Source: Paraescarpia echinospica | Taxonomy: Eukaryota; Annelida; Polychaeta; Sabellida; Siboglinidae | Length of the DNA stretch: 64,000 nt | Reading direction: 5' to 3' | NCBI GenBank assembly: GCA_020002185.1 | Contig: CM034534.1 | Coordinates: 30,771,851 to 30,835,850, forward strand | Part shown: in pieces, positions 16,953-39,594 of the stretch | Numbering within the stretch: the first letter of the stretch is position 1 | How the letters are laid out: every line of letters begins with the position of its first letter | Made by a program: the position numbers and the translations under genes | The notes under the pieces: generated by a model | The model's input: only the letters and a program-made list of their open reading frames with translations | The model's database searches: none | Told to the model about the DNA's origin: nothing

Positions 16953-18424
16953 GGACTAAGTGAAATTAAATTTCAATTTCTTTTAAACTATGTTAAAGTA
17001 TACTCTTGTCAAGTATTGTGCCAAATATGGAGTATGTTGGTTGCAAACTCATGTCACTAAACTTGCTCAAACACTGTCATTCACAAAACAGCCAGCTCGT
17101 CATATGTTAGTGACATCAAGGCCCGCAGAAATTACGGCAGGAATTCAGCAGTGCATATCAATACAATTATTCATTATGTGCAATCCATTCAACAGGTGGC
17201 AGCACGATACAGTCTCGACTAGACTACAACTGTTCATTAGCTCAAACTCGTTCGTACGGTGGCAGCACGTTATGGTCGCCGCTAAACCGTCTCTCAGGAA
17301 AACAACGATTGTAACACTGACTACCACATTAAAGGGACGTAGTCTGTTCGTCTACTCGTAATTAGCGAGCATAGTAATTTATAAATGGAAGTTGTCTGCT
17401 GTGTTGACCGTGGGAAAGCGAGTATCGTTGAACATCAAAGGGTATAGAAGTTAACTCAGCCCGACTTGGCCGTATTGCTTTCGTCATCAAGTTTTCGTGA
17501 ATGCGTCCACTTTCCTGTGATCTTCCGTGGATGACCCAGCTTCATCGGTGTCACTTTCCTGGAATGTTTCCCGGTACCTATCTATATGTCGCCTTGACTA
17601 TTGCAACTCATTGCTAAACAACATTGTTAAAAGGGACTTAATTAGCTAAACTTCAATGTGTGCACAATTGTCTAGCACGTATTGTATCATATTTAATAGT
17701 TAGCATGATATATTTTGATGAAAACTTGGTGCTGTGCTGTATAGATGTATAGGCACTGGGACTGCAGTGACTTATTGCCGTACAGCAGCATGGCTGTCAT
17801 CGGCCCACGCAGCCGTCACTGTATCATGTGGCAACTGGTAGCGGCTTAGCGATCTTGTTCAACTAGCATGTTCTATTTATATCTATGAAATAACCTCATT
17901 GAAATAGGTGGGGCGAGATCCTTGTGGGTGGACATCGACGCGGTAAAGCATAAAAACAAGTAAACATCCGGGTAACATTTTATTTATTTATAAATACTAT
18001 ATTCACACTTACATACCCCCACCCCCACGCCAACTCAGCTACCCAATTAACAACTACATAAGTGGACCGAGATCGACGGGCCGAAATCGACGTGGGCCGA
18101 GATCGACGAGAGTCAAGCGCGCTACCAAACGTACTAATCTTGCAACATTGATAACCGCAGTGCCACCAGACGACTATTTCGGAACTACGCATGAATGACT
18201 CGAGCTGTCTTTTCTGTTCTGGATCCAGCCTTAGGGTCAAATGTTTACATGCACATCAACCAAATAATCGAGATATTGTAGGGGACACTATGATTAACGT
18301 GGCTGCCTATGGATGGTGTAGCAATCTGATTAGTTTGTGAACAACTGACGTCTCAGGAAAACGTTTGCTCGGCATGGATATATTTGTTTATGGGTTGTTT
18401 TGTACGGTTGTCATGTAGCGAAAA
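16953..18424. other. Intergenic space between the CYREN-like gene and RAB28
   Basis: No supported gene. A polyadenylation signal for the upstream gene is not obvious. 17980-18240 minus is open for 86 codons just upstream of RAB28, the position of a possible divergent first exon, but I recognise nothing in it. Confidence 0.4.
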
Positions 18425-18490: not shown

Positions 18491-18565
18491 ATGTCTGACT
18501 CGGAAGACGAAAATCCCGACAGGCAACTAAAGATAATTATCATGGGAGACGGTGCATCAGGAAAG
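18491..18565 (+). CDS. RAB28: RAB28 exon 1
   Basis: The ATG at 18491 opens [20 protein letters not shown], nearly the human RAB28 start, so this start is secure. The exon ends inside the P-loop (GASGK) at a GTAAGT donor. Confidence 0.95.
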
Positions 18566-21500
18566 GTAAGTCGGTCATAGCCAGTCTATGTAGGCACTTC
18601 AACAAAAAATTAATATGCTAGAACACTGGGAATGGGCTTAAATTAAAGGTAATAGGTTAAGGATCACATAACTGTTTATTTTATTAAGATACCTTTAATA
18701 GATCAAAAGATATTGCGATTTTAAGACGGAAAAACAGCATAATTTTTGTGTATCTTACAATGGCAAAATGGACTCATTTTTGTGTTTTCTATAGGTAAAT
18801 ATTTGCTTTAAAATGTAATAACTTTTTTATTTATACAGATATTTAAATACTGTCTTCAGGGTTTTCAAACACATTGACAAGAATAATAAATTATATATTT
18901 TTAGTACTAATTATAACCAAATTAATGCAATTAATTAGTTAATTTTAGTTATGTAGCATGCAAAACTCAACAGACCAAAATGCTCCAATTAAAGGCCATA
19001 ATGTCCATGACTATGAAGATATTTATACATATTATGCAATGTGTATAACCACATTAATAATGGTAATAAATATACATTAACAAATAATTTAATAATTGAT
19101 TTAATTAGTCAATATTGGCTAATTAGTGCGCAACCTCAACAAACCGACACATTTCAGTAAAAGGCCATAATGTCCATGATTATGAAGATATTTGTATAAT
19201 TTATGAAAGCAGTAAACCACATTAATTATAGTAATAAATATACATTAACCAGTCATTTCACATTAACTTATTTAATAAGTTAATATTGGCTAATATTAGC
19301 ACGCTAACGACTGACCACTACATTTCTATAAAAGGCTGGAATGTCCATAATTATGAAGACAGTTATCTAATTTATGCAATGTTTACCACCACATTAAACA
19401 TTATAATAAATATACATTAACCAGTCATATATCATTAACAATAACTTTATTAATAAGTAAATATTGGCTAAATAGCACACAAACTCAACAGATCAATACA
19501 GTAGTCATACTTCACTGTGTCTATGTGTGACTGTGTCATGACAGGTTGGATGAATGCTGCAGGCTCTGTACAGACCAGTACTCAATTGTCACTGCTTCAT
19601 AATGTAATGTTCTGCATTTCAACATGAACTTGATGAAGTAATGTTCATAAATTGTTCACAGTATTCCATCGCTGGACCCAAATGCGCCAAATGCAAGACT
19701 GCTTTCTGCGTTACTCCCCATGGGAGTCAAGTCATGAAGAAGAAGAAGTCTGGTGTGCTCACAATACAGTCTTTTTGAAATATTGGCAGTTGATTTTCTC
19801 ATAGTTTAATGCCAGTAGACTGCAAGATCTGTGCAGCTAGGTTCATATTTCAGTATCTTGTACGACTCTGTGGCTCGGTACCTTCACAGTCAGACACAGA
19901 TCAGCGTAAGATCAGTGTCACAGCATGTAATTGCGAACAATATCTGAAATAAAATGGCCATCGTGTATCATATTTTGATAACTGTTTTGATTCTGCATGC
20001 AAATCTTGTGAAATAATTTTCATATCCCTGCAACTGTTACTCAAGAGAGCAGAGTGAAATTCTATAATAATGCATCATGTCGGTTGTCACACAATGAAAC
20101 GAATTATGTTACATCTGACCAAGGCATTTATGGTTTATATGACATGTTTTACAAAATGTTGTGCAGTGACTGTTTATCATGAAACACTTTTTAAAACAAG
20201 TTAAGTCGGATAATTTACGTATTTGATGTCAAAAACAATTTTTCTAACAAATTGTTGGTTTAATAGGTAACAACAATTAATTAAAATTATTGCATAATGA
20301 AATTTATATTCTAAGTCTAAATAAAAGCATAACCATAAATAATGGCATAATGATAAGCCATGCCAAACCCAAGAGCCAAGGCAAGAGTAAGCAGTAACCA
20401 ACCCTTTCCTAGGCTAAGCCTAAGGCTACTGCCTAGGCCAGGGCTAGGACTAGCCTGGACTGGAGTAGCGGAAATATGTCGGAATTGGTTTGACCCGTAT
20501 ATTAATTTAATCAGTGATTAACAAACAAATTATATCTAAAAGATAAAACAGGTAGTGTTCACTGTTGTTTTTGTAGGGATTTAAATTAAGATAAACAAGA
20601 TATGATTATGATCTGATAGACTCCTGTGACGCGCTCTCGGTCTGACAGAGCCAGATCGGCCAAAACAGTCACATTTTGAACAGCGTAAAATCTATATGGC
20701 GGAATCTGTCGGAACAACAACATTTTCAACACTGAATGAATAAAACCTATAGATGTGAATAGACACAAAATAATTTGTGGCAGTTTGTGCCAAAACTGTA
20801 AAACTTGCAAATGAATCACAGCTATGTCGTCTAATTGACAACAGTTCACTTAATTTTGGTCAAATTGTAAAAAGAAATTGACGCAAATAAACTTCAACTT
20901 ACCGTCTACAAGAATCCCGCAATGAATGACGTATACGACCATTAAAAGCGTGCGAAACGACGGGTTGAAACAAAACGCTACCAAGAAGCCGAGTAAACGG
21001 CACAGCGCAATTGCAACAGAAAATGACGCACACGAAAAAACGGCGCAAGCAGAATTTGTTGAAGTGCCTAGTCTATGTCTGTAACTAAAAAATGTCCACT
21101 GAATTAGCCCTGTAACTAATAATATAAGTTATATTACTAGTCAATATTCGTCTTCCATTTTATTTTTAATGCCAACAATCATCAAGATTCAAGTTGATTA
21201 TTTTGGCATTATTACAATAATAAGTTAGTGACGTGACACTGGCAGTCAGCAGACGACTGTACCGCTAGTTGTAGTACTAATATAGTAGTAATGGCAGCTA
21301 GTCGCGACTGTCATTGCATGTTGACACTGTCAGTGACAGTCACAGGGTTAATTAACCCCATCTATATTTTAAAGCTAAATGCGAGCAAAGTGATGCAGAG
21401 AGTCATCTTGAACAGATTGAAACCACAACTAGAAGAGATCATCACCGAAGAACAGGCAGGCTTTCGCAGTGGAAGAAGCACCACGGAACAAATATTCAAT

Positions 21501-24500
21501 CTTCGTGTCCTGGGTGAGAAATACATGCAACATCAACAGGAATTATTCCATGTCTTCATTGATTTCAAGAAGGCATTTGACAAGGTGTGGCATGCCGCAC
21601 CATGGGCAACAATGAAGAACTACAATATTGGACGAAAACTAATACACACCATCGAACAGTTATACGCTAATGCTAGCAGCACAGTACTGGTGCAAGGCGC
21701 TGTAGGTGAATGGTTCCACACATCAGTCAAGGATGCCTCTTGTCACCTACATTATTCAACATTTTCCTGGAACGAATAATGACAGATGCCCTGGAAGATC
21801 ACACTGGCACAGTCAACATTGGAGGACGCATCATCACCAACCTACGGTTCGCTGATGACATTGACGGGTTGGCTGGGAGTGAAGTGGAACTTGCTAACCT
21901 TGTGAACCGACTGGACGAAATATCAGCCAGATATGGAATGGAAATTAGCACAGAAAAAAACAATCTGATGACAAACAGCAAAAATGCAAAGAGGTCCCGA
22001 ATAACTGCCAATGGACACGAACTGGAAACAGTAAGTCAATTCAAGTACCTCGGAGCTATCATCAATGACGAGGGTTCAAGGAGCAAAATCCTTGCAAGAT
22101 CTGCGCAAACATTAGCAGCACTGGTGAAATTGAAACCAGTTTGGAGAGACAAAAACATTGCACTGAAATCTAAACTTAAACTAGTACGTACACTGGGCCT
22201 TTCCATCTTTCTGTATGCATGCGAATCATGGACCCTCACAGCGGAACTGCAAAGAAGAATTGCTGCATTGGAAATGAAATGCTACCGAAGAATCCTCGGT
22301 ATTTCCTACACTGACCACATCACAAACGATGAAATAAGAAAATCATCTCTCAACATGTGGTACATTACGAAGACCTGCTAACCACAGTAATAAAGAGAAA
22401 ACTGAGATGGTTTGGTTATGTAACACGATCAAGCGGGCTCACAAAAACAATACTACACCTATACAAGGAACAGTGCCGGGGAAAAGAAGACGGGGAAGAC
22501 AGAGGAAGAGATGGTCAGACAATATTGCAGAATGGACTGGGAAGACCTTTGCAGAAACTCGGACATTAGCACACAACCGCGAAGACTGGCGTCGACTGGT
22601 GAAACATTCAGCAATGCAGAACCCTCTGACCCAGGCGGGTTACGGGAGCAGTAAAAAAATATTTTAAAGAGCTCCTTTGACCTGCCTGTCTCACATGTAC
22701 ATAACATATTATAATCCGACTATGATATACCTTACATTTGACAGGCAGACCAGATAATGTAGTAATGTGATAATAACATACATATTACGCTATCTATACA
22801 ACTATGTAGGACTCCATATAGACATTACTCAAACCAAGCTGCGCCTTCGTGAAATGTCACCGGACATCTGACCTGACTGGTCACAGACGCAGATCTCCTG
22901 TTGCGCAAGCCAACAGTTTTTTTTTACCAAATACTGACCTCATAAAAGCTATTCATCTCTTGTAACCCATTTCAGGTATGCCACTAGGCAGTATTCTAAA
23001 AATATTCACATGAAAACTTGACACATAATGCGAGTTATGACATACATAAAATATTTGTTTGGATTATCACTTAGGCTCTGTGCTGAAGTGCCACTGTTTG
23101 GTACCTGTATGCGACCACCATTCCGCTGTAACCATACTTGACTGTGGACTAGTAGCAGAGTAATCCTTGTCTTATTGCACATGTTGCTATGGCATCATCT
23201 CGTACAATTATTGCTGCAGGCAATTCACATAGGTGCCGTTTGAAATCACTGTTGTTATAGTTTTGTGGTGTCTTCTGTTTGTCAGACCTCCCTTGCCACA
23301 CGTTACTCGCAGGAACATTTTGGCAAACAATACAAACAGACGATCGGTCTTGACTTCTTCCTCAAACACATCACCTTGCCAGGTAAGACAAAGGCTTATG
23401 TGTTTGCAAGTATGTGTCCATGTTAGTTCACTTTAATTGTCTCTCTGTCTTCACATGCATGTGCGTGTCTCATGATGTGTGTGTCTGACTGTCTGTGTGT
23501 GCATGTGTGTGTGTCTGTATAGCTATCGGACTGTGTGTTTTCTATACATGTGTGTATGTGTGAAAGCGTGCGTGCATGTGTGTATATATACATGTGTTGA
23601 TCTGTGTGTGTCGCTGTGTCTGTTTGCCTGTCGGTCTCTGTTGGTCCATCCGTCTGCACGCCTGTCTGTCTATGTGTCATCTGTGACACTGTCATTGTTT
23701 CTCTTCTCTCTAGGTGACACCCATGTGACGTTACAAGTGTGGGACATCGGGGGGCAGACGCTTGGTGGGAAGATGCTGGACAAATATGTGTATGGGAGCC
23801 AGGTAGGTTGTGTAGGAGCCAGGTAGGTTGTAGAGTGGAACAAAATGAGGCAAATATAACCTCTAGAGGCTGCATTGGGAAGATTGTGTAAAGAGAAATT
23901 TTGAGGGATTGGACAAGGTATGGTTGAAAGTGAGTGTAAGATAAAGGGGTGTGGAGATAATTGATGAAGATAGCAGTGCAAAAACAGTGAGGGGGAAGAA
24001 AAAGAAAAAAGAGAAATCGAGGACAGCATCACCCCAGACATAGAGAGAAAGAGGAGAAAAAGAATAGAATTCACCTGACCAATTCAACAGTTGCTTTGCC
24101 TGCAGCTTACTTTTCCATTGATTTTGTTTTGCATTGCCTACATGAGATATCATGATTATAATTTGGGTATAAAATTTATGGTAATTTGACTGGCAGAATT
24201 CCCACCCGTCATACTGAGGGGGGTATGGGGGTGGTTTGAAAAAGTACTGAACATTATACATATTTGGGTCTGACCGCTCATGTTATTATGTAGCATAGTG
24301 TTAGAACGTCGAACACAATCAAGAGATTCCAATCCTCTTGTAGCCATTTTGAAGTGCAGACAATTTGGTTCTCTCCATGTTGTCTTAGTTTACTCATCTC
24401 TATAAATGAGTACCTTGACAGTGGTGAACATATTTGTATTCCATTCATGAATAGACTTCACACAGTAATTACTGCATGGCTGAATACTTCCCAGAGAAGT

Positions 24501-26176
24501 CAAGATGCTGAACAGGTCTGCCAGGGAGTGAGTGAAATGTAAAATGCTTTGAGCAATTGTAAAGACTGTATACTACTACACTGTGGTATATAAGACCTGA
24601 GGCAACCCCTAAAATGAAACATTTGGCTGGAGACAGATTAGGCTTATAGATTAATGAAGAGGCCATCATCCAGTATACTAGAGTGGTTATAAAATTAAAT
24701 AACGTGAAAATAGTTACATGTATTGAACTTTGTTTTAGGGTATTCTGATGGTCTATGACATCACAAATTATGCGAGCTTCGAGAACTTGGAGGATTGGTA
24801 CACGGCCATCAAGAAGGTGTTTGAATCTGAAGGAAAGTTGCCACACATAGCCTTAGTGGGAAACAAAAGTGAGTTCACTGGCACAATGTGTGAATATTAT
24901 TTTATGGTTAATAAAATAGCCATTAGAATCATTCAGGCCTGTCAGTTACGTGCCTATCTTTTAAAATTAATACTTGAATATGTCATTTTTCCTTTGTTTT
25001 TAATGATCAGTTTTGTCTTTATATCAATTGTAATGTTCTTTTACTTTCTATGTGCAATAATATTTATATTGATCTTTCTTATAAAGGTCTTATTTTGAGG
25101 CTAAAAGTACTATTTATATGCTAAAAAACTATTTATTTAAAAAAATAAGCATTCCGGAAGTGAAAATTTGCTCATATTTTTGAACAAAATTCTCACGATA
25201 CTATAAGCATGATAGCCTTGGTATTTGGTGGTGGTTAAATACACCACAATAGCTGACTTTTGTACCTCACACACACACGCACACAGGTGATGACCTATGA
25301 CCCAACAGTGGCCAGGAAGAATGGTCCATTCATGACCTATGACCCAGGTTGTACTTTTCTCTTTTCCCACTGTTAATCTTATGCTATTATTGTCAGTAGG
25401 GGGCAGCACAGGACATTAGTAATATGTTAGTCACTAGATGCCAGTACCTGACACCACAAAGGGCAGTTTTTGGTGGATGTTGGGATACATGACGAGTTTG
25501 TGAAATTCTTGCTTTTGGGTCATATCTATGCTGATCTAAAGGTTCAGTGTGATAGATTTGAACATCCTAATTACCCATTAAATCACAAAACTACAGTTAT
25601 ATTTTAACCTTAAACAAGACATGGAATAATATTGAACTGGTGCACTGTGACTATGAGTAGCTCATTATTTGAAAACTGAATAGGGCTGTACGACAAGCTT
25701 GAGTTTGGTGGTGTTACCCACACAGTACCCACCTGTTTGATGGTCGGTATCTAAAATATTGAAATAGTGAAAACTGCACAAAAATATTAACAGCATCAGA
25801 AAATTCAGCCATTTTTCTATCAGAAAAGTTACATAAGAATTTTTCAGATTTTTCGAAAAAATTCAGCTAGTAGTGCGGCCTTAAGTAATTTAAAAGGCAT
25901 CTGAGAGCTTTTTTTTTAAGTGCATTCACATGCTCTATAAATATAATTTCAAATTATTATACGTATCTATGGGTGTTAATTTTGTCCTCCCAGATGGTTT
26001 GCATATATATTTATCACTTAATGTCCATGCTGCAGTGAACGCCTCAATGATTTGTGGATTGTTTACGTGCAGTTGACCTTGAACACATGCGGACAGTGAA
26101 GCTGGACAAACATCAACGGTTTGCGCAAGAGCACGGCATGAGTTCACATTTTGTCTCTGCCAAGACAGGCGATTCA
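18491..26176 (+). CDS. RAB28: RAB28 small GTPase, exons 1-5, C-terminus missing
   Basis: Exons 18491-18565, 23286-23382, 23714-23802, 24739-24868 and 26073-26176 join in frame to a protein of about 165 residues, close to human RAB28 throughout. All nucleotide-binding motifs are present: P-loop GDGASGKT across the exon 1/2 junction, switch [11 protein letters not shown], switch II WDIGGQ (the RAB28-typical form of WDTAGQ), GNKID and [12 protein letters not shown]28 is a divergent, normally prenylated Rab linked to cilia and BBSome/IFT trafficking and to cone-rod dystrophy in people. The last ~55 residues, including the prenylation CaaX box, should follow the 26176 donor (GTGAGT) but no matching exon is visible to the right before or inside the convergent MLH1 exons. 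Intron 1 (about 4.7 kb) holds a ~175-bp repeat and a LINE relic. Confidence 0.95.
18960..19490. repeat. ~175-bp tandem repeat, three copies, in RAB28 intron 1
   Basis: The block AAAGGCCATAATGTCCATGA, then TATGAAGATATTT and AATAAATATACATTAAC, recurs at about 18993, 19163 and 19333 (third copy AAAGGCTGGAATGTCC). AT-rich and moderately diverged. Confidence 0.85.
21330..22680 (+). mobile_element. LINE relic C in RAB28 intron 1, 5'-truncated with frameshifts
   Basis: Reads [20 protein letters not shown] then [12 protein letters not shown] (RT domains 1-2) and [15 protein letters not shown] (domain 3). After a frameshift near 21735 it continues with [26 protein letters not shown] (the catalytic FADD box) and [11 protein letters not shown] second frameshift near 22360 leads into [16 protein letters not shown] and the C-terminal [12 protein letters not shown] end. 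Same strand as RAB28. Non-LTR type; endonuclease part absent. Confidence 0.9.
23286..23382 (+). CDS. RAB28: RAB28 exon 2 (switch I)
   Basis: Starts with the Thr-Ser that completes the P-loop GKTS and carries [16 protein letters not shown], the switch I/effector region. Donor GTAAGA at 23383, phase 1. Confidence 0.95.
23470..23640. repeat. TG-rich microsatellite
   Basis: Imperfect (TG)n with TGTGTCTG variants in RAB28 intron 2. It is the source of spurious open frames on both strands. Confidence 0.85.
23714..23802 (+). CDS. RAB28: RAB28 exon 3 (switch II) with duplicated donor
   Basis: Encodes [20 protein letters not shown] and on to YVYGSQ, the G3/switch II region. The donor GTAGGT at 23803 sits in a 20-bp tandem duplication, so a second identical donor lies 20 nt downstream. 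Confidence 0.95.
23795..23834 (+). repeat. 20-bp tandem duplication of the RAB28 exon 3 donor site
   Basis: GGAGCCAGGTAGGTTGTGTA is followed at once by GGAGCCAGGTAGGTTGTAGA. Each copy has the identical donor CCAG|GTAGGT, at 23803 and 23823. Use of the second would add 20 nt and shift the frame. Confidence 0.95.
24739..24868 (+). CDS. RAB28: RAB28 exon 4 (G4 motif)
   Basis: Encodes [20 protein letters not shown] and ends in VGNK plus one base of the Ile codon. Joined to exon 5 this gives GNKIDLEHMRT, identical in this stretch to human RAB28 as I recall it. Confidence 0.95.
26073..26176 (+). CDS. RAB28: RAB28 exon 5 (G5 motif)
   Basis: Encodes [17 protein letters not shown] (the first base of the Ile codon comes from exon 4) and [12 protein letters not shown], the SAK guanine-base motif. 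Donor GTGAGT at 26177, phase 0. This is the last RAB28 exon I can find. Confidence 0.93.
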
Positions 26177-26399
26177 GTGAGTGGCTTCTTGTGCACAGTT
26201 ATCCTGGGGGACTTAACTACAGACACTTGTTGGTTAAATATCTACCCGAGTTGTATACCACTTTACTGTTTATTCTAGTTGCTTGTATGTATGATTTATA
26301 TACAATTCAAAAAATAAACTATCTATCTATTATTTTACCCTTTGAGAAATTACCCATCGAAGATTGTTCACAATACTGAATTTATGTTTAAAATTAAGA

Positions 26400-29300
26400 G
26401 TTGCATCCACTGCTTCTTTCAACCTCTAATATCACTCTGTTCAACACTTTTCCCGGGATTGATAGTAACATTATTCCTCTATAGTTCTTGCATTCTCTGA
26501 GATCTCTCTTCTTGGGGAGCTTGACTACGAGTCCCTCTCCATTCCTCTGGAACTCTTTCGTCTTCCCAGCCTTTCTCGAAGATGCTGTGCAGTATTTCCG
26601 TGGATGTGTTAATATCTGCCTTTATCACCTCTGCTGGTATTTCATCTGGCCCTGCTGCCTTTCCGTTTTTCAGTTTCTTGATAGTGTTCTTGATTTCTGT
26701 TCTGCTTAGTATATCACAGTTTATTGGTAGAACTGTCTCTGCTGGGGGGATAACTGGGGGATCTTCTGGAGTGTGTCGGTTTAATATTTCTGTGAAGTGC
26801 TCCACCCATCTCTTTAGTTGGTCGTCTACCGTGGTGAAGGCTTTGCCTTGCTTGTCTTTAATTGGTTTGTCCTTTGGTTGGTACTTGCCAGCCAGCTTCT
26901 TTGTTATGTTATATAGATCTTTCCTGTTTCTTTTTGCTGCTGCCTCCTCTGCCTGTGTTGCTACTTACCAGGTTGTCCACCAAGCTTCTCTTGTCTCTTC
27001 TGATGCTCTTCTTTACCTCCTTCTCAGCTTGTGTGTACTGTGCTTGGCCTTCTGCCTGTGTTGCCAGGTTGTCCACCAGGTTGTCCACCAAGCTTCTCTT
27101 GTCTCTTCTGATGCTCTTCTTTACCTCCTTCTCAGCTTGTGTGTACTGTGCTTGGCCTTCTGCCTGTGTTGTCAGGTTGTCCACCAGGTTGTCCACCAAG
27201 CTTCTCTTGTCTCTTCTGATGCTCTTCTTTACCTCCTTCTCAGCTTGTGTGTACTGTGCTTGGGCTTCTGCCTATGTTGGCAGGTTGTCCACCAGGTTGT
27301 CCACCAAGCTTCTCTTGTCTCTTCTGATGCTCTTCTTTACCTCCTTCTCAGCTTGTGTGTACTGTGCTTGGGCTTCTGCCTGTGTTGTCAGGTTGTCCTC
27401 CAGGTTGTCCACCAAGCTTCTCTTGTCTCTTCTGATGCTCTTCTTTACCTCCTTCTCAGCTTGTGTGTACTGTGCTTGGCCTTCTGCCTGTGTTGTCAGG
27501 TTGTCCTCCAGGTTGTCCACCAAGCTTCTCTTGTCTCTTCTGATGCTCTTCTTTACCTCCTTCTCAGCTTGTGTGTACTGTGCTTGGGCTTCTGCCTATG
27601 TTGTCAGGTTGTCCTCCAGGTTGTCCACCAAGCTTCTCTTGTCTCTTCTGATGCTCTTCTTTACCTCCTTCTCAGCTTGTGTGTACTGTGCTTGGGCTTC
27701 TGCCTGTGTTGTCAGGTTGTCCTCCAGGTTGTCCACCAAGCTTCTCTTGTCTCTTCTGATGCTCTTCTTTACCTCCTTCTCAGCTTGTGTGTACTGTGCT
27801 TGGGCTTCTGCCTGTGTTGTCAGGTTGTCCACCAGGTTGTCCACCAAGCTTCTCTTGTCTCTTCTGATGCTCTTCTTTACCTCCTTCTCAGCTTGTGTGT
27901 ACTGTGCTTGGGCTTCTGCCTATGTTGGCAGGTTGTCCACCAGGTTGTCCACCAAGCTTCTCTTGTCTCTTCTGATGCTCTTCTTTACCTCCTTCTCAGC
28001 TTGTGTGTACTGTGCTTGGGCTTCTGCCTATGTTGTCAGGTTGTCCTCCAGGTTGTCCACCAAGCTTCTCTTGTCTCTTCTGATGCTCTTCTTTACCTCC
28101 TTCTCAGCTTGTGTGTACTGTGCTTGGGCTTCTGCCTGTGTTGTCAGGTTGTCCTCCAGGTTGTCCACCAAGCTTCTCTTGTCTCTTCTGATGCTCTTCT
28201 TTACCTCCTTCTCAGCTTGTGTGTACTGTGCTTGGCCTTCTGCCTGTGTTGCCAGGTTGTCCTCCAGGTTGTCCACCAAGCTTCTCTTGTCTCTTCTGAT
28301 GCTCTTCTTTACCTCCTTCTCAGCTTGTGTGTACTGTGCTTGGCCTTCTACCTGTGTTGCCAGGTTGTCCTCCAAGCTTCTCTTGTCCCTTCTGAGGCTC
28401 TTCTTTACCTCCTTCTCAGCTTGTGTGTACTGTGCTTGGCCTTCTACCTGTGTTGCCAGGTTGTCCTCCAGGTTGTCCACCAAGCTTCTCTTGTCCCTTC
28501 TGATGCTCTTCTTTACCTCCTACTGAGCTTGTGTGTACTGTGCTTGGGCTTCTGCCTGTGTTGCCAGGTTGTCCTCCAGGTTGTCCACCAAGCTTCTCTT
28601 GTCTCTTCTGATGCTCTTCTTTACCTCCTTCTCAGCTTGTGTGTACTGTGCTTGGGCTTCTGCCTGTGTTGCCAGGTTGTCCTCCAGGTTGTCCACCAAG
28701 CTTCTCTTGTCTCTTCTGAGGCTCTTCTTTACCTCCTTCTCAGCTTGTGTGTACTGTGCTTGGCCTTCTGCCTGTGTTGCCAGGTTGTCCTCCAGGTTGT
28801 CCACCAAGCTTCTCTTGTCTCTTCTGGTGCTCTTCTTTACCTCCTTCTCAGCTTGTGTGTACTGTGCTTGGCCTTCTGCCTGTGTTGCCAGGTTGTCCTC
28901 CAGGTTGTCCACCAAGCTTCTCTTGTCCCTTCTGATGCTCTTCTTTACCTCCTTCTCAGCTTGTGTGTACTGTGCTTGGCCTTCTGCCTGTGTTGCCAGG
29001 TTGTCCTCCAGGTTGTCCACCAAGCTTCTCTTGTCTCTTCTGGTGCTCTTATTTACCTCCTTCTGAGCTTATGTGTACTGTGCTTGGCTTTCTGCCTGTG
29101 TTGCCTGGTTGTCCTCCAGGTTGTCCACCAAGCTTATCTTGTCTCTTCTGAGGCTCTTCTTTACCTCCATCTGAGCTTGTGTGTGCTGTGCTTGGGCTTC
29201 GGCTTTCGTTGCTCTAGTTTTTCTGCTGTTCAGTATCGCCTTCTTTTCCTTTCACACTTGTAGCTTGAGTAATGTGTCAGTTGTCATCCAGTCTTTGTGC

Positions 29301-29620
29301 TGTGTTTTCTTTCTGCCTACTGTCTCTTCACAAACACCAGTCCACATCTGCTTGGCTTGTTGCCACTTCGGTTCTAGTTCAGTGTTGCTATCGTATAGTT
29401 CTTGCAGCACCTGGTATCTGTTCGAGAAGCTAATCCGGTACTTTTCTGTCGTTCCCTTGTCCTTCAGTAGATCTATGTTGTAACATGTTCTTGTGCTGCT
29501 GCCCTGTGCTATGAGCCTCTTCAGATGGAGCTAGAGTGTTGCCACCACCAGGTGGTGATCAGAAGCAGCATCAGCCCCTCTCTTCACTCTCACATCCTGC
29601 AGCAACCTTCTTTATCAGCT
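26400..29620 (-). mobile_element. LINE relic D with a 108-bp array inside its ORF
   Basis: Reading minus from right: 29600-29215 carries the end of an endonuclease domain (RRGADAASDHHLVVATLQL) and a linker with KDWMTTDTLLKLQV. 29210-26945 is the tandem array. Then comes VEHFTEILNRHTPEDPP, IKKLKNGKAAGPDEIPAEVI and WEDERVPEEWR, the classic RT domain 0-1 of CR1/RTE-like elements, ending around KNYRGIMLLS at about 26440. The catalytic YxDD part is missing, so the copy is truncated at both ends. It lies between the last RAB28 exon and the last MLH1 exon. Confidence 0.88.
26945..29210 (-). repeat. 108-bp minisatellite, about 21 copies, in frame within the LINE ORF
   Basis: Each unit encodes 36 residues on the LINE strand (QAQYTQAEKEVKKSIRRDKR plus SLVDNLEDNLATQAEG). 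The flanking LINE reading frame is kept. Stops occur on the minus strand only in the copies with CCTATGTT. One copy near 28360 is 18 bp short. The 893-codon plus-strand ORF here is the antisense shadow. Confidence 0.95.
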
Positions 29621-30534: not shown

Positions 30535-30653
30535 CTTTGTGTGTTTGGTCTTCAATTTTGCGTCTTAAATCCAATACACTTTTTAGGCGAATTGTTCGTT
30601 TTGACAACCCTGCAGCTGTGTCGTCTGCTTCCTCCGTAAGTGGCCGCTTCTTA
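30535..30653 (-). CDS. MLH1: MLH1 exon 13 equivalent, last MLH1 exon seen
   Basis: Encodes [15 protein letters not shown], then [20 protein letters not shown], aligned with [20 protein letters not shown] of human MLH1. Donor GTATGT on the minus strand at 30534, phase 1. The next exon (HEVLREMLHNH region) is not found at lower coordinates. Confidence 0.85.
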
Positions 30654-33600
30654 CTAACATATAAGATTTTAAATATTACAAAGTAATTGTCGTAAATAGC
30701 AGACTGTCATTAACAAAAAACTTACGAAGATGTGAAAATAAGATCAACATAATATAACAAAACACATTTTGTGACATCAGTGAAGTATCCAATTTAACTA
30801 CTCAGCATGTAGCAAGAAGCACATAAAATACAATATTTGAGATGATGACACCACAAGATTGTATTCTTAATGAGTTATTTTAAATAACATGAAACTGGGC
30901 TCTTAACTTTGTTTTTAAAGGACTACATTTATTACAAACAAAACCTTCAAAGTTGTCTGACGACTGTGCCAATGATTGAAAAAAGCAGCATTACACATGT
31001 CGAGTGCTTAGCTTAAATGGAGTAAAAATGTTATCACCAAACCTGGAAGTTTCCCGAGCTGATGTAGCTCCACCAACAGGGTTGTCGTCTGTAGTTGTCT
31101 CCATGTTTGTTTCATCTCTTGACCGCTGACTGGTGACAGAGGGTCCTCGCTGGAGAAAGGCATCCAGCTTCTGAGTGCGGCTGTCAGTGCGTACCATGTT
31201 GTGGGCGTACACTTTACTTGCGTCTAAAATGTTAGAAAAGTTACATCACATTTAGCCATCTTTAAAGGTAGTATTACAAACGACTGCTTTCTTGTTTTGT
31301 TGTTTTACTTAACTTAATTTTTAGGCAGTTTGAAAATTGAAACTGTCTGAAATAGTCAAATAATATAGTGTGACCTTAAACAACCATACACCAGTGTATC
31401 TGTAATATCTACAACAACTTGTTTAGTTTAATTATATGTTATTAAAGTTTACAACTGAGCCTGATGATAAAATGTATGACATACATAATATACGAGGAAA
31501 ATATAGTTCATCAAAAAGTTTATTATGGTTTCCCTCTAATAGCTGTCCTGGTTGAAGACTAGAAAAGTTGTTCCTGTTTGAAGTCTTTGGGAGCACTAAC
31601 ATTTCACTGCACAGTTCATTCAGCGGTATAGACGACCAATACGTCAATTCTACAATATGCTTCGGTGGAATTATGTAATAAATTACGGATAATACTCTCT
31701 TCTTGGTTCCAATGATATGCATGCATGCAAAACATGCATGTACCCATCCATTCATTAATGCATGGATGTATTTATGCAGGCATCACATACATATGTATAC
31801 ATCTAAGCATTTTAAGATCACATCTATAAGCTGTGTTTCTCCAAACTTATTTTGAGTAGTTAAATGTATTACGGTGGTTCCTCATTTATATATTGCTCTA
31901 AATACTAGAATACATATGTTGAGGCTACACTGCTAGCCAAACTCTTTAATATGTCCATATTTGCTATTTGAAAGTTCCACCCCCAAAATGATAAACAAAC
32001 ATTCATAAGCACCCAGTATTGGTACCTATTGCTTTGCACTCACTGGGTCGAAGACAAGTGATACAGTGAGCTTCCTGTGAATAATTGGCTGGTTCCGCTT
32101 AACGCAACAGGCAATGTACGTTTTATACCAAAACAGATACAAGATGACAGAGATGTTGACAGCAACAACATACCACTGGTTGTCAACTTTGTGTCATTGT
32201 CGTTCGGCGTCAGATTGGCTCCAGGCAACAGGGCCTGCAACATGAAAACTACAGTTGGCTCCAGACAACAGGGCCTGTAACAAGAACACTACAGTTGGCT
32301 CCAGACAACAAGGCCTCCAACAAGAACACTACAGTTGGCTCCATACAACAAGGCCTCCAACAAGAACACTACAGTTGGTTCCAGACAACAAGGCCTCCAA
32401 CAAGAACACTACAGTTGGCTCCAGACAACAAGGCCTCCAACAAGAACACTACAGTTGGCTCCAGACAACAGGGCCTCCAACAAGAACACTACAGTTGGTT
32501 CCAGACAACAGGGCCTACAACATGAACACTACTGTTGGCTCCAGACAACAGGGCCTCCAACAAGAACACTACAATTGGTTCCAGGCAACAGGGCCTGCAA
32601 CAAGAATACTACAGTTGGTTCCAGGCAACAGGGCCTGCAACAAGAACACTACAGTTGGCTCCAGACAACAGGGCCTGCAACAAGAACACTACAGTTGGCT
32701 CCAGACAACAGGGCCTCCAACAAGAACACTACAGTTGGCTCCAGACAACAGGGCCTCCAACAAGAACACTACAGTTGGTTCCAGGCAACAGGGCCTGCAA
32801 CAAGAACACTACAGTTGGCTCCAGACAACAGGGCCTCCAACAAGAACACTACAGTTGGCTCCAGACAACAGGGCCTGCAACATGAACACTACCGTTGGCT
32901 CCAGACAACAGGGCCTGTAACAAGAACACTACAGTTGGCTCCAGACAACAGGGCCTGCAACAAGAACACTACAGTTGGCTCCAAACAAGGTCAACAACAT
33001 GAACACTACAGTGGGCTACAGACAACAGGGCCTGCAACACGAACACTACAGTTGGTTCCAGACAACAAGGCCTGCAACAAGAACACTACAGTTGGCTCCA
33101 GACAACAAGGCCTGCAACAAGAACACTACAGTTGGCTCCAAACAAGATCAACAACATGAACACCACAGTGGGCTACAGAAAACAGGGCCTGCAACATGAA
33201 CACTACAGTTGGTTCCAGACAACAAGGCCTGAAACAAGAACACTACAGTTGGCTCCAGACAACAGGGCCTGTAACAAGAACACTACAGTTGGTTCCAGAC
33301 AACAGTGCCTGTAACAAGAACACTACAGTTGGTTCCAGACAACAGGGCCTGCAACAAGAACACTACAGTTGGTTCCAGACAAGAAGGCCTGCAACAAGAA
33401 CACTACAGTTGGTTCCAGACAACAAGGCCTGCAACATGAATACTACAGTTGGCTCCAGACAACAGGGCCTGTAACAAGAACACTACAGTTGGCTCCAAAC
33501 AAGGTCAACAACATGAACACTACAGTGGGCTACAGACAACAGGGCCTGCAACAAGAACACTACAGTTGGTTCCAGACAACAAGGCCTGCAACAAGAACAC

Positions 33601-36600
33601 TACAGTTGGCTCCAAACAAGGTCAACAACATGAACACTACAGTTGGCTCCAGACAACAAGGCCTACAACATGAACACTACAGTTGGCTCCAGACAACAGG
33701 GCCTGTAACAAGAACACTACAGTTGGCTATAGACAACAGGGCCTGTAACATGAACACTACAGTTGGTTCCAGACAACAGGGCCTGCAACAAGTACACTAC
33801 AGTTGCCTCCAGACAACAAGGCCTACAACATGAACACTATAGTTGGCTCCAGACAACAGGGCCTCCAACAAGAACCCCACAGTTGGCTCCAGACAACAGG
33901 GCCTGTAACAAAAACACTACAGTTGGCTCCAGACAACAGGGCCTGTAACAAGAACACTACAGTTGACTCCAGACAACAGGGCCTCCAACAAGAAGATTAC
34001 AGTTGGCTCCAGACAACAAGGCCTACAACATGAACACTACAGTTGGCTCCAGACAACAGGACCTCCAACAAGAACACTACCATTGGCTCCAGACAACATG
34101 GCCTGTAACAAGAACACTATAGTTGGCTCCAGACAACAGGGCCTGCAACAAGAACACCACGGTTGGCTCCAGACAACAGGACCTGTAACAAGAACACTAC
34201 AGTTGGCTCCAGACAATAGGGCCTTCAACAAGAACACTACAGTTGGCTCCAGACAACAGGGCCTCCAACAGGAACACTACAGTTGGCTCCAGACAACAGG
34301 GCCTGCAACAAGAACACTACAGTTGACTTCAAGCAAGGTTAATGGATTATGGTCCAGCAAAATTCAAAAAAGTAACTGAAACTTGGACTACCGGTACTAT
34401 TTTTATTCTTGTCTTCCTAGAAATGGAAAACAATGATAACCACAGTTTAAATGTAAGCAACACCATTCATAGAATTTGCATATTAATTGATATGTGAATC
34501 GCAGTGTTGAGTCCGAAGTAAACATATTGATTGACTGAATATGAATTATAACAAGTTTGACCCATTGTTTTGTTTCTGTATGCATAAACAAACCCACCAT
34601 GCAGCATCTACACAACATTGTGGAGACAAGAACAATTCTTTAATTTATCCATTTACTTTATTAATTTTTTGTATTAATATCACTTGACCAGCTATTTCTA
34701 TAATTAGTACATTGCCTAAAAATCTTTAATTTGCACAACACTAGTAACAAGTTGTTTTAACAAATCTTACAAAGAGAGAAAACATAGTTATAAAAGGGAA
34801 AGAGGAAACAACTGGACACGGGTCATTACAAGTACACAGAACAACTTCATAGAAACTTGCAGAATGATGATCTCTGCCAAGATTAATGAAAAATAAGCAC
34901 AATACATCATTAATACAACCAACGTGACCAGCCTGTGTTCATTGGACAACGTAAGTTCGCTGTGAACTGAAGCTAAATGCTATTATGGCTCTTTGCAGCC
35001 ATCAATAATTTACTTACTCTTTCTATGAAAAACATTAATCCCTAAGTGGCGTCTGCACAGAAGGAAAGATAAATATTACACCGTGTCAAACCAGTACAAT
35101 GTCTGTTGTTGATTTTCCCCAAAAGCTAACAAGTTGCCGGTTGCATCATTAGAGGAACAGTGTCCCATCTGGGAGGGGGCAATAATGAAATAGTTGGTGC
35201 ATAAAGGATCCGTGAATTGAGGCTAATTGAAAAATGTCATCTCAAGTGTCAGCACCAAGACAGAACACATGAATACAACTAGATCGAGGTACATTTATTT
35301 TGTTACTTAACTTGAATATTTTACTTTACTTGAGTAATGAAGTACATATTTATGTGTACTTTTACTTAGTAATTTCTGTCTATAATAATAATCTAATTGA
35401 AACAAATGCCTTCTTGTGCCATGCTAGCACAACAAGCAGTTGTATTTTTAAATTAGCGGTTTCATTAGCAAGAATTTGCAAGATAATCAGGTGTCTGTGT
35501 GTGCAACTTCTCACCATATGTAAGTATTGGTGTTGGCCACTTTATATACACACACACATGTGCACGCATGCACACACGCACGTATGCACACACGCACGCA
35601 TGCATGCACACACGCATGCACACACGCATGCATGCACGCACGCACACACGCATGCATGCACATATATAAGTAAATTACTTTTATGTTTACTTCAAGTGGA
35701 ATTGTTTACATTTGTTCTGTACATCAGGTACATTGTTAAACAACATTTTCAGTTCTACTTGAGTATCTTTTTCCAGTTTCCAAGTACTTTCACTAAGTAC
35801 AAAATAAATCTATTTCTGCCACTTCTGTGAACGAGCGAAGTGACAATATCCGAGGCTGCTGAATGGAATTCTGTAATTACTAGTTCAACTTTTCTCTATT
35901 AAAAAGTATAGATCCATCTTTTTCTGTTTCTTTATCACGAATACTATTTACACATCTAACTAAGCCAATCAGCAGCCGTTTGCTTAAAATTCAAATTGCT
36001 AAATGTAACAAGTGGTTAAAAAATTTGCTCATTTAAACTTACGTGTTTCTTCATGTTGCATGTAGCATCACCTTATAAAAGTTTACCCAGAGCAACTAAA
36101 GCACCCTGTGTTGACAAGAAACATGCCCAGGAATACAGTCTACCTGAGTGAAGTATGTCCGGGACACGTTGGAGCCCAGAAGTTTGGCCTCAACTGTCTT
36201 CTGTAAACTCTCTATGATGGCTTCTTCATGGAGGAAATGCACCTCATGTTTGGTGGGGTGGACATTGACATCAACATTCTGAGGGCTGATCTCAAGACTG
36301 AAACACAACCAATCAACATTCTGAGGGTGACAGCAAGACTGAGACACAGCCAGACAACATAAGGAGGGGTGATCTCAAGAATGAAACACAAAAAGACAAC
36401 AGTCTGAGGGATGATCTCAAGACTGAAACACAACCAGACAACATTCTGAGGGGTGATCTCAAGACTGAAACACAACCAGACAACATTCTGAGGGGTGATC
36501 TCAAGACTGAAACACAGCCAAATATCCTGATGGGTGATCTCAAGACTGACATTTTTTGTTGGCAACTACGTGACGGTTTTGTGCACATGCACACACACAT

Positions 36601-38683
36601 ATGCACGCATGTACACACCCGCCCACACGCATAGGTGACTTAGGTGTACGTATTTAATAATAATAATAATAGTAAGATAACTTCTATTGCGCCTAAATCC
36701 TTGGAAACCAAGCTCAGAGGCGCATCAAAACAAAAGGACTGGTCAATCTCAAAATCCATAAGTAGTATTCCAGTTGTCAACAGATGGGTCAAGGCGCTAG
36801 GGAGCTATGGTGGATAAGCAAAGTTGTAAAGATAAGTTTTTAAATGACGACAGAATTTTTTAATATTTTCAACTGATCTAACACTAAGAGGGAGCATATT
36901 CCAGAGTTGGTGCAGCAACAGAAAAAGCCCTAGTTCCAATGTTAGTGTTGACTCCAGGAACAAAAATTAGGTCAGAACTAGATGATCGAAGCTGGATAGG
37001 TTTTCTTACAGGAGTAAGCAATGAATGCAAATAAGATGGTTGCTTACTGGACTGTAAATAAAGACAAGGTGAACATGCAACCTTTCTTTATTACTATTTT
37101 ATATGAGTAACTTAGGTTCACAGAGAACTTTTTGTAATCACCCGGTAGAGGTATGGAGAATTTCTTGCTAAATCGATTAGAAGAAAAAATGTTATTTGCA
37201 GACTTTGTATATAGTAAAAAAAGTAACTAGTTTCACCAACCTGAGGTAGATGAAAGGATGAGTGTTTTTCGGCAGGTATGCTGCATACACAACGTCAATG
37301 GCTTTCTTCAATGTCGACGACTCAACAAGGCGATCTACAAATGGAAAAAGAAATGCCTTTAATCCGCTGTTTTCATATAAAACTCTTTCATCTGAACGAG
37401 TTCGTCATGGATCAGGTTCATCGTGTTCATACCTGTAGTGAGGGAATACTTGAAGTAAAGTGCCCACTAGGTTTAACAAGACAGCATATTTTGGTTGACT
37501 GGTCAAAAATCACTGAATTAATCTACTTTGATCTTTACATGATGTAACTTGTGAAGTACCAAGTCATAAGTCATAGTTTACAGTCAGACCCCCTGGAGCT
37601 ATATGATGACCCCCCAGGGTAGAGCCCCTTGCAAATACACAACAATCCCCAAAGCCCCCTGAAGCTACACGACAATCCCCAGGGATAGACACCCCTGCTG
37701 CTACAAGACAACCCCGACTAGTGGTCCCCGGTTTTTTATTTAGGAATCGCAGCCTTTCATAACACACGAACATGACAAGAACGGAACATGTTACACAAGA
37801 AAGGAACATGTTACACAATAATAATTCAAAATTAATCTATGCACCATCCTGGATCTGGCTGAACGTGTCAGTCACTGATTCAATATATGCAGTAATTGTC
37901 TCGGCATAATTGATAACTGACGTAACAGTGGATCAGTGGTCCCATGTAACAGACAGTGCCACATATTGCCGTGGGTGTGGGAGGTGCAACAATGCACAAT
38001 ACTCCAGTCAATGTGTAACCTCTTTAATGTATTGATGCGATGCACCGAGAAAGCGTCCGTCTGCCAATAAAGCTGGTCTGGTCCGTGGCATGCTTCACAA
38101 TTTGCTGGCATGAATGTGCAAAAAAAGAATTGATTCCCGACATCCGTATCACTTCATCAGTGATTGTGTGCTTGATAAACTCGTTGGCCAGATTCCAGAA
38201 ACTTCTGTGCACACATGACTGGCCACAATGGTACTGACAGCAAGGTACAGTTAAAAAACTGACAAAAAGACAAAATACATTCACAGGGGTGAAAGAATCT
38301 ATTTTTATTTCTGTGTTTGATACAATAAAATGCATTCATGTATGCTGTTAATATGGATACCCGTACATGTTATGTTTGTACTGGGGGAAATGCTTAAAAG
38401 TATTACTTTGCAGAAGAAATATATTTTCTATTTAAAAAGAAATATATTTTCCATTGAAAAAATGTGTTGTTATTTTATCATAGTATTCTATATTGTTTTT
38501 TGATGGAAGTAAAGTATTGATTGATTGTTCCTGTAGTTTGTCCTGTAGGTGGGGCCACTTAGACACTTACGGTTGATGAAGAGTAACAAGACACCTTTCT
38601 TGCTTGAATAGTTCGCATTGGTGATGAAGCCTTTGAGACAGAAACCAAGACGGTCGTCAGAACCCTCAACTTCTAACAGCTCC
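30535..38683 (-). CDS. MLH1: MLH1 mismatch-repair protein, internal exons 9-13 equivalents only
   Basis: Minus-strand exons 38571-38683, 37241-37334, 36144-36297, 32174-32234, 31043-31223 and 30535-30653 join in frame with GT/AG borders. The protein follows human MLH1 from the end of the ATPase domain (ELLEVEG) into the linker ([12 protein letters not shown]). Exon sizes 113, 94 and 154 bp equal what I recall for human exons 9-11; human exon 12 is split here into 61 and 181 bp. MLH1 pairs with PMS2/PMS1/MLH3 as MutL and acts after MutS recognition; these exons cover the transducer part of the GHKL ATPase and the disordered linker. The N-terminal ATP-binding motifs (human exons 1-8) and the C-terminal dimerisation domain (exons 14-19) are not visible anywhere in the window. 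The exons are open and conserved, so this is not an old pseudogene. Three exons are preceded by minisatellites made of their own acceptor. Confidence 0.92.
31043..31223 (-). CDS. MLH1: MLH1 exon 12 region, main linker exon
   Basis: Encodes [20 protein letters not shown] and then DAFLQ, the diagnostic MLH1 VYAHQMVRTDSREQKLDAF match, followed by a polar disordered linker. 181 bp, phase 2 exit. Confidence 0.95.
32174..32234 (-). CDS. MLH1: MLH1 short exon at start of exon 12 region, with array at acceptor
   Basis: 61 bp, encodes [20 protein letters not shown], aligned with the human TLLPGLAGPSGE region. Phase 0 entry after FTQ and phase 1 exit (AGTG|GTATGT) fit both neighbours exactly. Its acceptor TTGCAG and first 18 exon bases form the unit of the 40-bp array that follows. 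Confidence 0.85.
32216..34335 (-). repeat. 40-bp minisatellite made of an MLH1 3' splice site, about 53 copies
   Basis: On the minus strand each unit reads GTGTTCTTGTTGCAG|GCCCT followed by GTTGTCTGGAGCC. It is the end of the intron (22 nt, pyrimidine-rich, ending CAG) plus the first 18 nt of the exon at 32174-32234. The true junction at 32234/32235 is simply the leftmost unit, about 36 of 40 bases like the consensus. Some units are shortened variants with AAACAAGGTCAACAAC. In the MLH1 intron 32235-36143. Confidence 0.95.
34400..35540. other. MLH1 intron, no feature seen
   Basis: AT-rich sequence without open frames, tandem structure or recognisable transposon ends. Confidence 0.5.
35550..35665. 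repeat. (CACACGCATG)n microsatellite
   Basis: Alternating CA/CG-rich runs with CACGCATGCA blocks. Purine-pyrimidine alternation throughout. Confidence 0.9.
36144..36297 (-). CDS. MLH1: MLH1 exon 11 equivalent with tandemly copied acceptor
   Basis: Encodes [20 protein letters not shown], the conserved MutL motif, and ends [13 protein letters not shown]. 154 bp. The acceptor and first 25 exon bases are repeated upstream (36298-36545). Confidence 0.95.
36298..36545 (-). repeat. 42-bp tandem copies of an MLH1 acceptor and exon head, about 6
   Basis: The minus-strand unit is 17 nt of intron end (GTTGTGTTTCAG) plus the first 25 nt of the exon 36144-36297. Each copy encodes [14 protein letters not shown] (14 residues; 42 is divisible by 3), an echo of the true LEISPQNV. 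The copy next to the exon is slightly shorter, which shifts the frame between the exon and the outer copies. Confidence 0.93.
36655..37080. repeat. Dispersed repeat with (ATA)n end
   Basis: Begins with (AATA)n, then GCGCCTAAATCCTTGGAAAC and CAAGCTCAGAGGCGC. The same block occurs inverted at 49045-49105 (about 85% alike by eye). Downstream sequence such as GGGAGCATATTCCAGAGTTG extends it to about 37080. Probably a SINE or LINE 3' end. Confidence 0.65.
37241..37334 (-). CDS. MLH1: MLH1 exon 10 equivalent
   Basis: Encodes [20 protein letters not shown] then [10 protein letters not shown], nearly the human sequence. 94 bp, acceptor TTGTAG, donor GTTGGT. This exon has no array at its acceptor. 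Confidence 0.95.
38571..38683 (-). CDS. MLH1: MLH1 exon 9 equivalent
   Basis: Encodes [20 protein letters not shown] then [18 protein letters not shown], matching the NGYISNANYS region of human MLH1. 113 bp. Its acceptor (TTTTAG, minus strand) is the first unit of the 33-bp array at 38690-41965. Confidence 0.92.
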
Positions 38684-38689
38684 CTAAAA

Positions 38690-39594
38690 CATAAACACCA
38701 AAATCTCTACAAGTTCCCAGAAAAACAAACACAATCTCTATAAGTTCCAAGAAACACGAACACCACAATCTCTACAAGTTCCTAGAAATATAAACATCAC
38801 AGTATCTACATGTTCCCTGAAACACAAACACTACAATATCTACAAGTCCCTAGAAATATAAACATCGCAGTATCTACATGTTCCCAGAAACACAAACACT
38901 ACAATATCTAAAGTTCCTAGAAATATAAACATCGCAGTATCTATATGTTCCCAGAAACACAAACACAAGTTTTTCCAGAAATACAAATAACACAATCTCA
39001 GAAAGTTCACACAAACACATATAACACAATCTCTACAAGTTCCTAAAAACACAAACACCACAATCTCTACAAATTCCCAGAAACACAAACACCACAATCT
39101 CTACAAGTTCCTAGAAACACAAACACCATGATCCCTACAATTTCCTAGAAATACAAACAACACAAACTCTGCAAGTTCCAGAAACACAAATGACACAATC
39201 TTTGCATGTTTCCAGAAACACAAACAACAGTTACAAAAAAAACACCACAATCTCTGCATGTTACCAAAATTTCAAACACCACAATCTCTACAAGTTCCTA
39301 GAAACACAAATACTACAATCTCTAGCCACTTTCACAAAAACACAAGTCACAATCTGTACCAGTTCTTACAAACACATGTTACACAATCTAGCGTCTGTCA
39401 CAAACACATAATCTCTAGCAGATTTTACAAATGCTCACTACACAATCTCTAGCAGCTCCAACGAACACATCATTTCTAGCAGCTCCAACAAACACATCAT
39501 TTCTAGCAGCTCCAACAAACACATCATTTCTAGCAGCTCCAACAAACACATAATAAATTACATCTCTCACAAACACAATACACTATCCTGAGCA
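38690..39594 (-). repeat. 33-bp minisatellite next to MLH1 exon 9 equivalent, proximal block
   Basis: The plus-strand unit is ACAATCTCTACAAGTTCC then TAGAAACACAAACAC. It starts at the exon's acceptor: the exon/intron border (TTCTAACAGCTCC|CTAAAACATAAACACC) aligns to the unit at about 23 of 32 positions. Each copy keeps a minus-strand TTTCTAG, a possible 3' splice site. The last copies (39440-39560) change to TAGCAGCTCCAAC. Confidence 0.85.

What the first reader, a model, noticed from the sequence alone, without database searches (positions are those of the whole stretch)
32174..34335. About 53 tandem copies of an MLH1 3' splice site
The 40-bp minisatellite is not arbitrary intronic sequence: every unit is the intron end (pyrimidine-rich, CAG) plus the first 18 nt of the 61-bp MLH1 exon. 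The true acceptor is the last unit in transcript order, so the spliceosome meets about 50 near-identical acceptors before the real one. Using an upstream unit would add n x 40 nt, in frame only for multiples of three and usually running into a TAG present in each unit in one frame. Copy-number change could therefore alter MLH1 splicing and mismatch repair. I know of no description of such a splice-acceptor array.
Basis: partly seen in the sequence, partly recalled or inferred. Interest (0 to 1): 0.88.

Follow-up and report, generated by a model that had tools for sequence, protein, structure and literature searches.

The report
Tubeworm MLH1 splice-acceptor minisatellite mirage
In the mismatch-repair gene MLH1 of what is likely a deep-sea tubeworm, the junction between an intron and a 61-base exon is repeated 53 times in a row; this is likely a case, in another animal phylum, of the 'mirage' repeats known from amphioxus, and splicing is predicted to use only the last copy, because each of the 48 other copies that still has a splice signal would put an early stop into the message.

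Summary
A 40-bp minisatellite (32215-34325) has 53 units, each carrying an intron end plus the first 20 nt of a 61-bp MLH1 exon (32174-32234, minus strand). The exon is supported by homology and frame. The exon-proximal unit is the true acceptor; 48 of 52 upstream units keep an AG, and 23 of these 48 score at least as well on a rough acceptor matrix. None of the 48 gives an open message, multiples of three included.

Two more MLH1 acceptors in the window carry arrays (exon 11: clear; exon 9: degenerate, weaker case), and a RAB28 donor is duplicated in tandem. The source is probably a siboglinid annelid.

New here, within my searches, are the phylum and three arrays in one gene. An effect on MLH1 splicing or mismatch repair is untested: no RNA was available.

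The parts
32215..34331 (-). Array 1: 53 units of 40 bp (four of them 37 bp), each an acceptor junction of MLH1 exon 12a (20 intronic + 20 exonic nt)
   Evidence: TRF 32215-34325; unit parse 34331-32211 incl. partial ends; 0 of 2000 shuffles
32174..32234 (-). MLH1 exon 12a, 61 nt; its acceptor (AG at 32235-32236) is the last unit in transcript order
   Evidence: frame and AG/GT boundaries; same junction in L. satsuma P0076
36144..36297 (-). MLH1 exon 11 (154 nt)
   Evidence: PDB 4p7a Mlh1 E 4.1e-23; boundaries
36272..36549 (-). Array 2: 42-bp units spanning the exon 11 acceptor; true unit plus 6 upstream (one partial), 5 of 6 keep AG
   Evidence: TRF, unit parse, 25 of 26 exonic nt shared, 0 of 2000 shuffles
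38571..38683 (-). MLH1 exon 9 (113 nt), first MLH1 exon found in the window
   Evidence: tblastn and boundaries
38661..39469 (-). Array 3: degenerate 34-bp units running into the exon 9 acceptor
   Evidence: TRF, parse; 14 of 20 exonic nt in fixed register, 11 of 20000 shuffles; free alignment to the exon alone not significant, 577 of 2000
37241..37334 (-). MLH1 exon 10 (94 nt), no array at its acceptor
31043..31223 (-). MLH1 exon 12b (181 nt), no array at its acceptor
30535..30653 (-). MLH1 exon 13 (119 nt), no array at its acceptor; last MLH1 exon found in the window

Best explanation
The 2.1-kb array is a minisatellite whose 40-bp unit is a copy of the acceptor junction of a 61-bp MLH1 exon, likely grown by slippage or unequal exchange (a 'mirage'), and splicing is predicted to use only the copy next to the exon. 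Shown: units span the intron-exon boundary; the exon-proximal unit is the true acceptor; 48 of 52 upstream units keep an AG; each of those 48, used alone, meets a stop 60-183 nt into the extended exon; a second acceptor of the same gene has a clear array and a third a degenerate one. Inferred: a short segment straddling the acceptor was duplicated by chance, then expanded and homogenised, while the true copy stayed under coding selection (ALLPGA) and the upstream copies drifted (ALLSGA in 25 of 48). Inferred: correct splicing persists because pairing with the nearby donor favours the exon-proximal acceptor, and because misspliced messages carry a stop ahead of further exon junctions and would be removed by nonsense-mediated decay. 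The array most likely has no dedicated function; it is a tolerated load.
For: Unit and exon share 19 of 20 exonic nt, 0 of 2000 shuffles. Six exons join in one open frame; L. satsuma MLH1 P0076 reads YFTQALLPGANLTP across the junction, without array units. 48 of 48 upstream acceptors give a stop. Array 2 at exon 11 repeats the pattern (25 of 26 nt). A tandem copy of the RAB28 exon 3 donor, and 3 of 20 tested splice sites with a local copy of 17 of 20 or better against 0.7% of 2000 control positions. Amphioxus mirages have the same anatomy and, by RT-PCR in the cited work, do not disturb splicing (PMC3087553, PMC3902484, passages).
Against: No RNA was seen, so use of the last unit is inferred. 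23 of 48 decoys score as high as the true site or higher, and the nearest upstream unit (ACAG) is a strong one, so some missplicing is expected. For array 3 the link to exon 9 is weak: free alignment 577 of 2000 shuffles, local-copy test 13 of 20, reached by 15% of controls. No donor of MLH1 or the GPCR has an array (0 of 7), although mirages in amphioxus affect both ends.
Confidence: 0.82

Rival explanations
1. The array works as a poison-acceptor bank: a share of transcripts uses upstream units, which destroys the message and sets the MLH1 level, depending on copy number.
For: 48 intact decoys, all leading to a stop. The weak GAG form is over-represented in the 8 upstream units nearest the exon, 6 of 8 against 7 of 40, Fisher p 0.003, label permutation 0.028, as if strong near decoys were selected against.
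Against: With neighbouring units moving together the GAG cluster is not clear: 3 of 48 circular shifts do as well, and the cut at 8 was chosen after viewing. Amphioxus mirages reportedly do not yield aberrant mRNA. Similar arrays at other exons suggest a general mutational process rather than MLH1 control.
Confidence: 0.08
2. The window holds a dead or partial MLH1 copy, so the array has no splicing meaning.
For: Exons 1-8 and 14-19 were not found in the 64-kb window with human MLH1, five animal MLH1 proteins, three N-terminal pieces and the P0076 C-terminus.
Against: Six exons with AG/GT boundaries and one open frame, 76% identical to L. satsuma MLH1 over 240 residues. L. satsuma MLH1 is annotated in two pieces broken at the same place (P0315 ends DSVAR, P0076 starts at exon 9), both listed with longest contig 204,205, like its GPCR P0001; Ridgeia P0197 ends at the same residues. 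A very long intron 8 fits better.
Confidence: 0.06
3. Recursive splicing: the units are stepping stones that remove the long intron piecewise.
For: Serial acceptors in one intron.
Against: A recursive site needs AG|GT; only 2 of 48 upstream acceptors have it, both AG|GTCCTG, a poor donor.
Confidence: 0.01

Closest known systems
Amphioxus 'mirages' (Adh3; globins BflGb6, BflGb9; troponin C; PGBD5): PMC3087553 and PMC3902484, passages seen; Canestro 2002 known only through citation
   Same: Minisatellite-like tandem duplication of an exon-intron boundary inside a gene; BflGb6 copies the 3' end of an intron plus the start of the exon; Adh3 units are 10-72 bp, as here 34-42 bp; units keep AG signals.
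   Different: Likely an annelid, not a cephalochordate; 53 units against 6 and 3 in the two BflGb6 haplotypes (copy numbers for Adh3 not seen); three acceptors of one gene; no RNA or polymorphism data here.
[quoted passage not shown] seen only as a reference title in PMC2572611)
   Same: A minisatellite made of a splice site inside a transcript.
   Different: Donors, not acceptors; details recalled, paper not held.
Intron gain by tandem duplication of splice signals (discussed in PMC3087553, passages)
   Same: Tandem duplication that copies splice signals; mirages are proposed there as raw material for new introns.
   Different: No new intron seen: the exon 11/12a junction lies at YFTQ/LLPG, the human junction (exon 11 end matched; human intron position recalled).

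Membership tests
Mirage (boundary minisatellite) | Tandem units span an exon-intron boundary of a gene | tested here: met
   Arrays 1 and 2: 19 of 20 and 25 of 26 exonic nt, 0 of 2000 shuffles each
Mirage (boundary minisatellite) | Same for array 3 at exon 9 | tested here: inconclusive
   Fixed register 14 of 20 (11 of 20000 shuffles), register chosen after viewing; free alignment 577 of 2000
Mirage (boundary minisatellite) | Unit length in the reported range (Adh3 10-72 bp; globins about 150-160 bp) | tested here: met
   40, 42 and 34 bp; range from PMC3087553
Mirage (boundary minisatellite) | Regular splicing undisturbed in RNA | not testable with these tools
   No RNA; L. satsuma gene model has the normal junction, presence of an array there unknown
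Mirage (boundary minisatellite) | Length instability between haplotypes or cells | not testable with these tools
   One sequence only
Splice-donor minisatellite (IFI6 type) | Unit carries a donor site | tested here: not met
   Units carry acceptors; AG|GT in 2 of 48
Recursive splice sites | Acceptor followed directly by a donor (AG|GT) | tested here: not met
   2 of 48
Intron gain by tandem duplication | The intron is new at this position | tested here: not met
   Junction at the conserved YFTQ/LLPG place (human intron position recalled)

The most novel reading that the evidence does not exclude
MLH1 message level in this tubeworm is set by a bank of 48 poison acceptors tuned by selection: the decoys nearest the exon, which would compete best, have been weakened to GAG. 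Since mismatch repair limits recombination between diverged repeats (recalled), copy number and MLH1 output would feed back on each other.
Probability: 0.08. Interest if true: 0.8.

Novelty: new member of a known kind. Interest (0 to 1): 0.42.

Why it matters
It likely takes boundary minisatellites out of amphioxus into annelids, and gives 48 near-identical natural acceptors in one pre-mRNA: a ready test of how the spliceosome picks one 3' splice site among equals, and of whether nonsense-mediated decay lets such arrays accumulate. That it sits in MLH1 matters only if missplicing proves measurable.

Tried and rejected
Chance resemblance of unit and exon: rejected for arrays 1 and 2. Recursive splicing: rejected (2 of 48 AG|GT). 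In-frame protein variants through upstream units: rejected (0 of 48 open). Amphioxus as the source: expected from the mirage literature, but the GPCR at 54007-57713 matches Lamellibrachia satsuma at 83 and 81% and an unnamed protein P0003 at 92% over 71% of the query (87% over residues 11-329 by tblastn). A siboglinid annelid is likely; the species is not known.

Missing MLH1 exons: only weak hits from human MLH1 (E up to 50), five animal MLH1 proteins (E up to 1; hits inside array 1 not printed), three N-terminal pieces and the P0076 C-terminus (E up to 5). The best of these is a 13-residue match at 18063-18101 on the other strand (E 0.15), not taken as an exon.

Selection for weak near decoys: Fisher p 0.003, label permutation 0.028, but 3 of 48 circular shifts, and the cut was chosen after viewing. 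Kept only as an idea. Pfam on 10 ORFs: 4 had matches (GPCR, Ras type, two reverse-transcriptase pieces), 6 had none. I did not annotate the other ORFs (509 of at least 38 codons outside arrays).

The acceptor matrix is a rough human-like consensus from recall, not a published model; it puts the exon 13 acceptor at -1.15, below many background AGs (median -1.13 of 325), a sign of its limits.

Literature: searches. No title listed or passage opened there reports boundary arrays in an annelid; the library holds open-licence papers only. PMC12783039 (passages) describes intron-1 minisatellites in earthworm metallothionein genes; PMC9921365 (passages) has no mention of MLH1. Canestro 2002 and Turri 1995 are not held.

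Full report
Observation. Tandem Repeats Finder reports a 40-bp array at 32215-34325 with 53.1 copies and 89% matches. Read on the minus strand, parsing gives 53 full units CTGTAGTGTTCTTGTTGCAG|GCCCTGTTGTCTGGAGCCAA. The bar marks an acceptor; the right half is the start of an exon at 32174-32234, 61 nt, encoding ALLPGANLTPNDNDTKLTTS.

The exon is supported by homology. Six exons on the minus strand (38571-38683, 37241-37334, 36144-36297, 32174-32234, 31043-31223, 30535-30653) have AG/GT boundaries and join into one open frame of 240 residues. The exon upstream of the array matches Mlh1 in the PDB (4p7a, E 4.1e-23) and ends at the same residues YFTQ. The annotated L. satsuma MLH1 (P0076) reads SRTYFTQALLPGANLTP across the junction. 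The first three exon lengths, 113, 94 and 154, equal those of human exons 9-11 (human lengths recalled).

Array anatomy. The exonic half of the consensus matches the exon at 19 of 20; 0 of 2000 dinucleotide shuffles of the exon reach the alignment score. The unit next to the exon is the true acceptor. Of 52 upstream units, 48 keep AG and 4 lost it. The base at -3 is C in 30, G in 13, T in 4 and A in 1 of the 48. On a rough matrix written from recall the true site scores 9.52 and 23 of 48 upstream sites score as high or higher; the other five acceptors of the gene score -1.15 to 9.68.

Consequence of using a decoy. For each of the 48 upstream acceptors I joined exons 9-11, the extended exon and exons 12b-13. 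All 48 meet a stop 60-183 nt into the extended exon; only the true acceptor leaves the frame open. This includes the steps that keep the frame. Further exon junctions lie downstream, so these messages would be targets of nonsense-mediated decay (inference from the established junction rule).

Coding selection. The true exon keeps ALLPGA, as in the L. satsuma, Owenia, Mactra, Haliotis and Lineus proteins fetched. Of the 48 ungapped upstream units 25 read ALLSGA and none ALLPGA. Against the true exon the units show 70 nonsynonymous and 16 synonymous differences, where 36 and 18 single changes are possible: no sign of coding selection on the units. Units share ancestry, so this is a description, not a test.

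More arrays in the same gene. The 42-bp array at 36272-36549 spans the acceptor of exon 11, with 25 of 26 exonic nt shared, 0 of 2000 shuffles, and 5 of 6 upstream units keeping AG, one of the six partial. A degenerate 34-bp array, 38661-39469, runs into the acceptor of exon 9. Its link to the exon is weaker. For it: 14 of 20 exonic nt match in the register set by the acceptor (11 of 20000 shuffles; 0 of 607 other exonic 20-mers), and 5 of 9 pieces found by a pattern read ELVEI in the exon's frame, where L. satsuma MLH1 has ELVEV. Against it: a free alignment to the exon alone is not significant (577 of 2000 shuffles), the local-copy test gives 13 of 20, reached by 15% of controls, and the register was chosen after viewing. 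In all, 3 of 7 examined acceptors and 0 of 7 donors lie within 30 nt of an array edge; 36 of 20000 circular shifts of a hand-merged list of 21 arrays give 3 or more acceptors.

A neighbour. A RAB28 gene on the plus strand (PDB 2hxs, E 3.2e-15; exons by a recalled human probe) has the donor of its third exon duplicated in tandem, GGAGCCAG|GTAGGTTG twice, 20 nt apart. Of 20 splice sites tested for a local copy of the 20 nt around the boundary, 3 reach 17 of 20 or more (MLH1 exon 11 and 12a acceptors, RAB28 exon 3 donor), against 0.7% of 2000 control positions outside arrays. Two of the RAB28 donors in that list were placed one base off.

Source. The GPCR gene at 54007-57713 has its best named relatives in Lamellibrachia satsuma (83 and 81%) and an unnamed one at 92% over 71% of the query. 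L. satsuma is a siboglinid annelid. The window is therefore likely from a siboglinid tubeworm. Tandem arrays fill about 30% of it by the hand-merged list.

The rest of MLH1. Exons 1-8 and 14-19 were not found in the window. L. satsuma has MLH1 in two models broken at the same point, 181 aa (P0315) and 478 aa (P0076), both listed with a longest contig of 204,205, like its GPCR P0001; Ridgeia piscesae P0197, 225 aa, ends at the same residues. A very long intron 8 is the simplest reading (inference), with the GPCR and RAB28 genes possibly inside MLH1 introns.

Known kind. [quoted passage not shown] it cites the like in Adh3, with units of 10-72 bp and somatic instability. PMC3902484 (passages) adds troponin C and PGBD5 in lancelets. 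Arrays 1 and 2 meet the defining anatomy; array 3 is inconclusive. RNA, polymorphism and somatic change could not be tested.

Verdict. A genuine, large acceptor minisatellite, most likely a tolerated mirage in an annelid. The claim that it alters MLH1 splicing or mismatch repair is open and not favoured.

Noticed in passing
23714-23840 (+): RAB28 exon 3 donor duplicated in tandem (GGAGCCAG|GTAGGTTG twice, 20 nt apart): a two-copy donor-side boundary repeat.
   Followed up: partly
18491-26200 (+) and 54007-57713 (+): RAB28 and a rhodopsin-type GPCR lie on the strand opposite MLH1, possibly inside its introns 13 and 8, if MLH1 continues beyond both window ends.
   Followed up: partly
P0076, P0315 (L. 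satsuma), P0197 (Ridgeia): MLH1 models are split at the exon 8/9 border: P0315 and P0197 end at DSVAR, P0076 starts at exon 9; a very long intron 8 may break gene models.
   Followed up: partly
26479-29530 (-): 108-bp array, 20.8 copies at 96% (26968-29200), within what looks by eye like a retroelement-type reading frame; Pfam gave no match for 26479-26961.
   Followed up: no
1699-4104: 33-bp array, 71.8 copies, open in several frames on both strands (up to 791 codons), as a multiple of three allows.
   Followed up: no
55322-56770 (+): 53-bp array in the GPCR intron whose unit holds a donor-like CAAGTAAGT and an acceptor-like TTACAG; not at an exon border (nearest GPCR splice site 383 nt away).
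   Followed up: no
32281-33159 (+): The plus strand of array 1 is stop-free over long stretches (292 codons), probably because the unit lacks stops on that strand.
   Followed up: no
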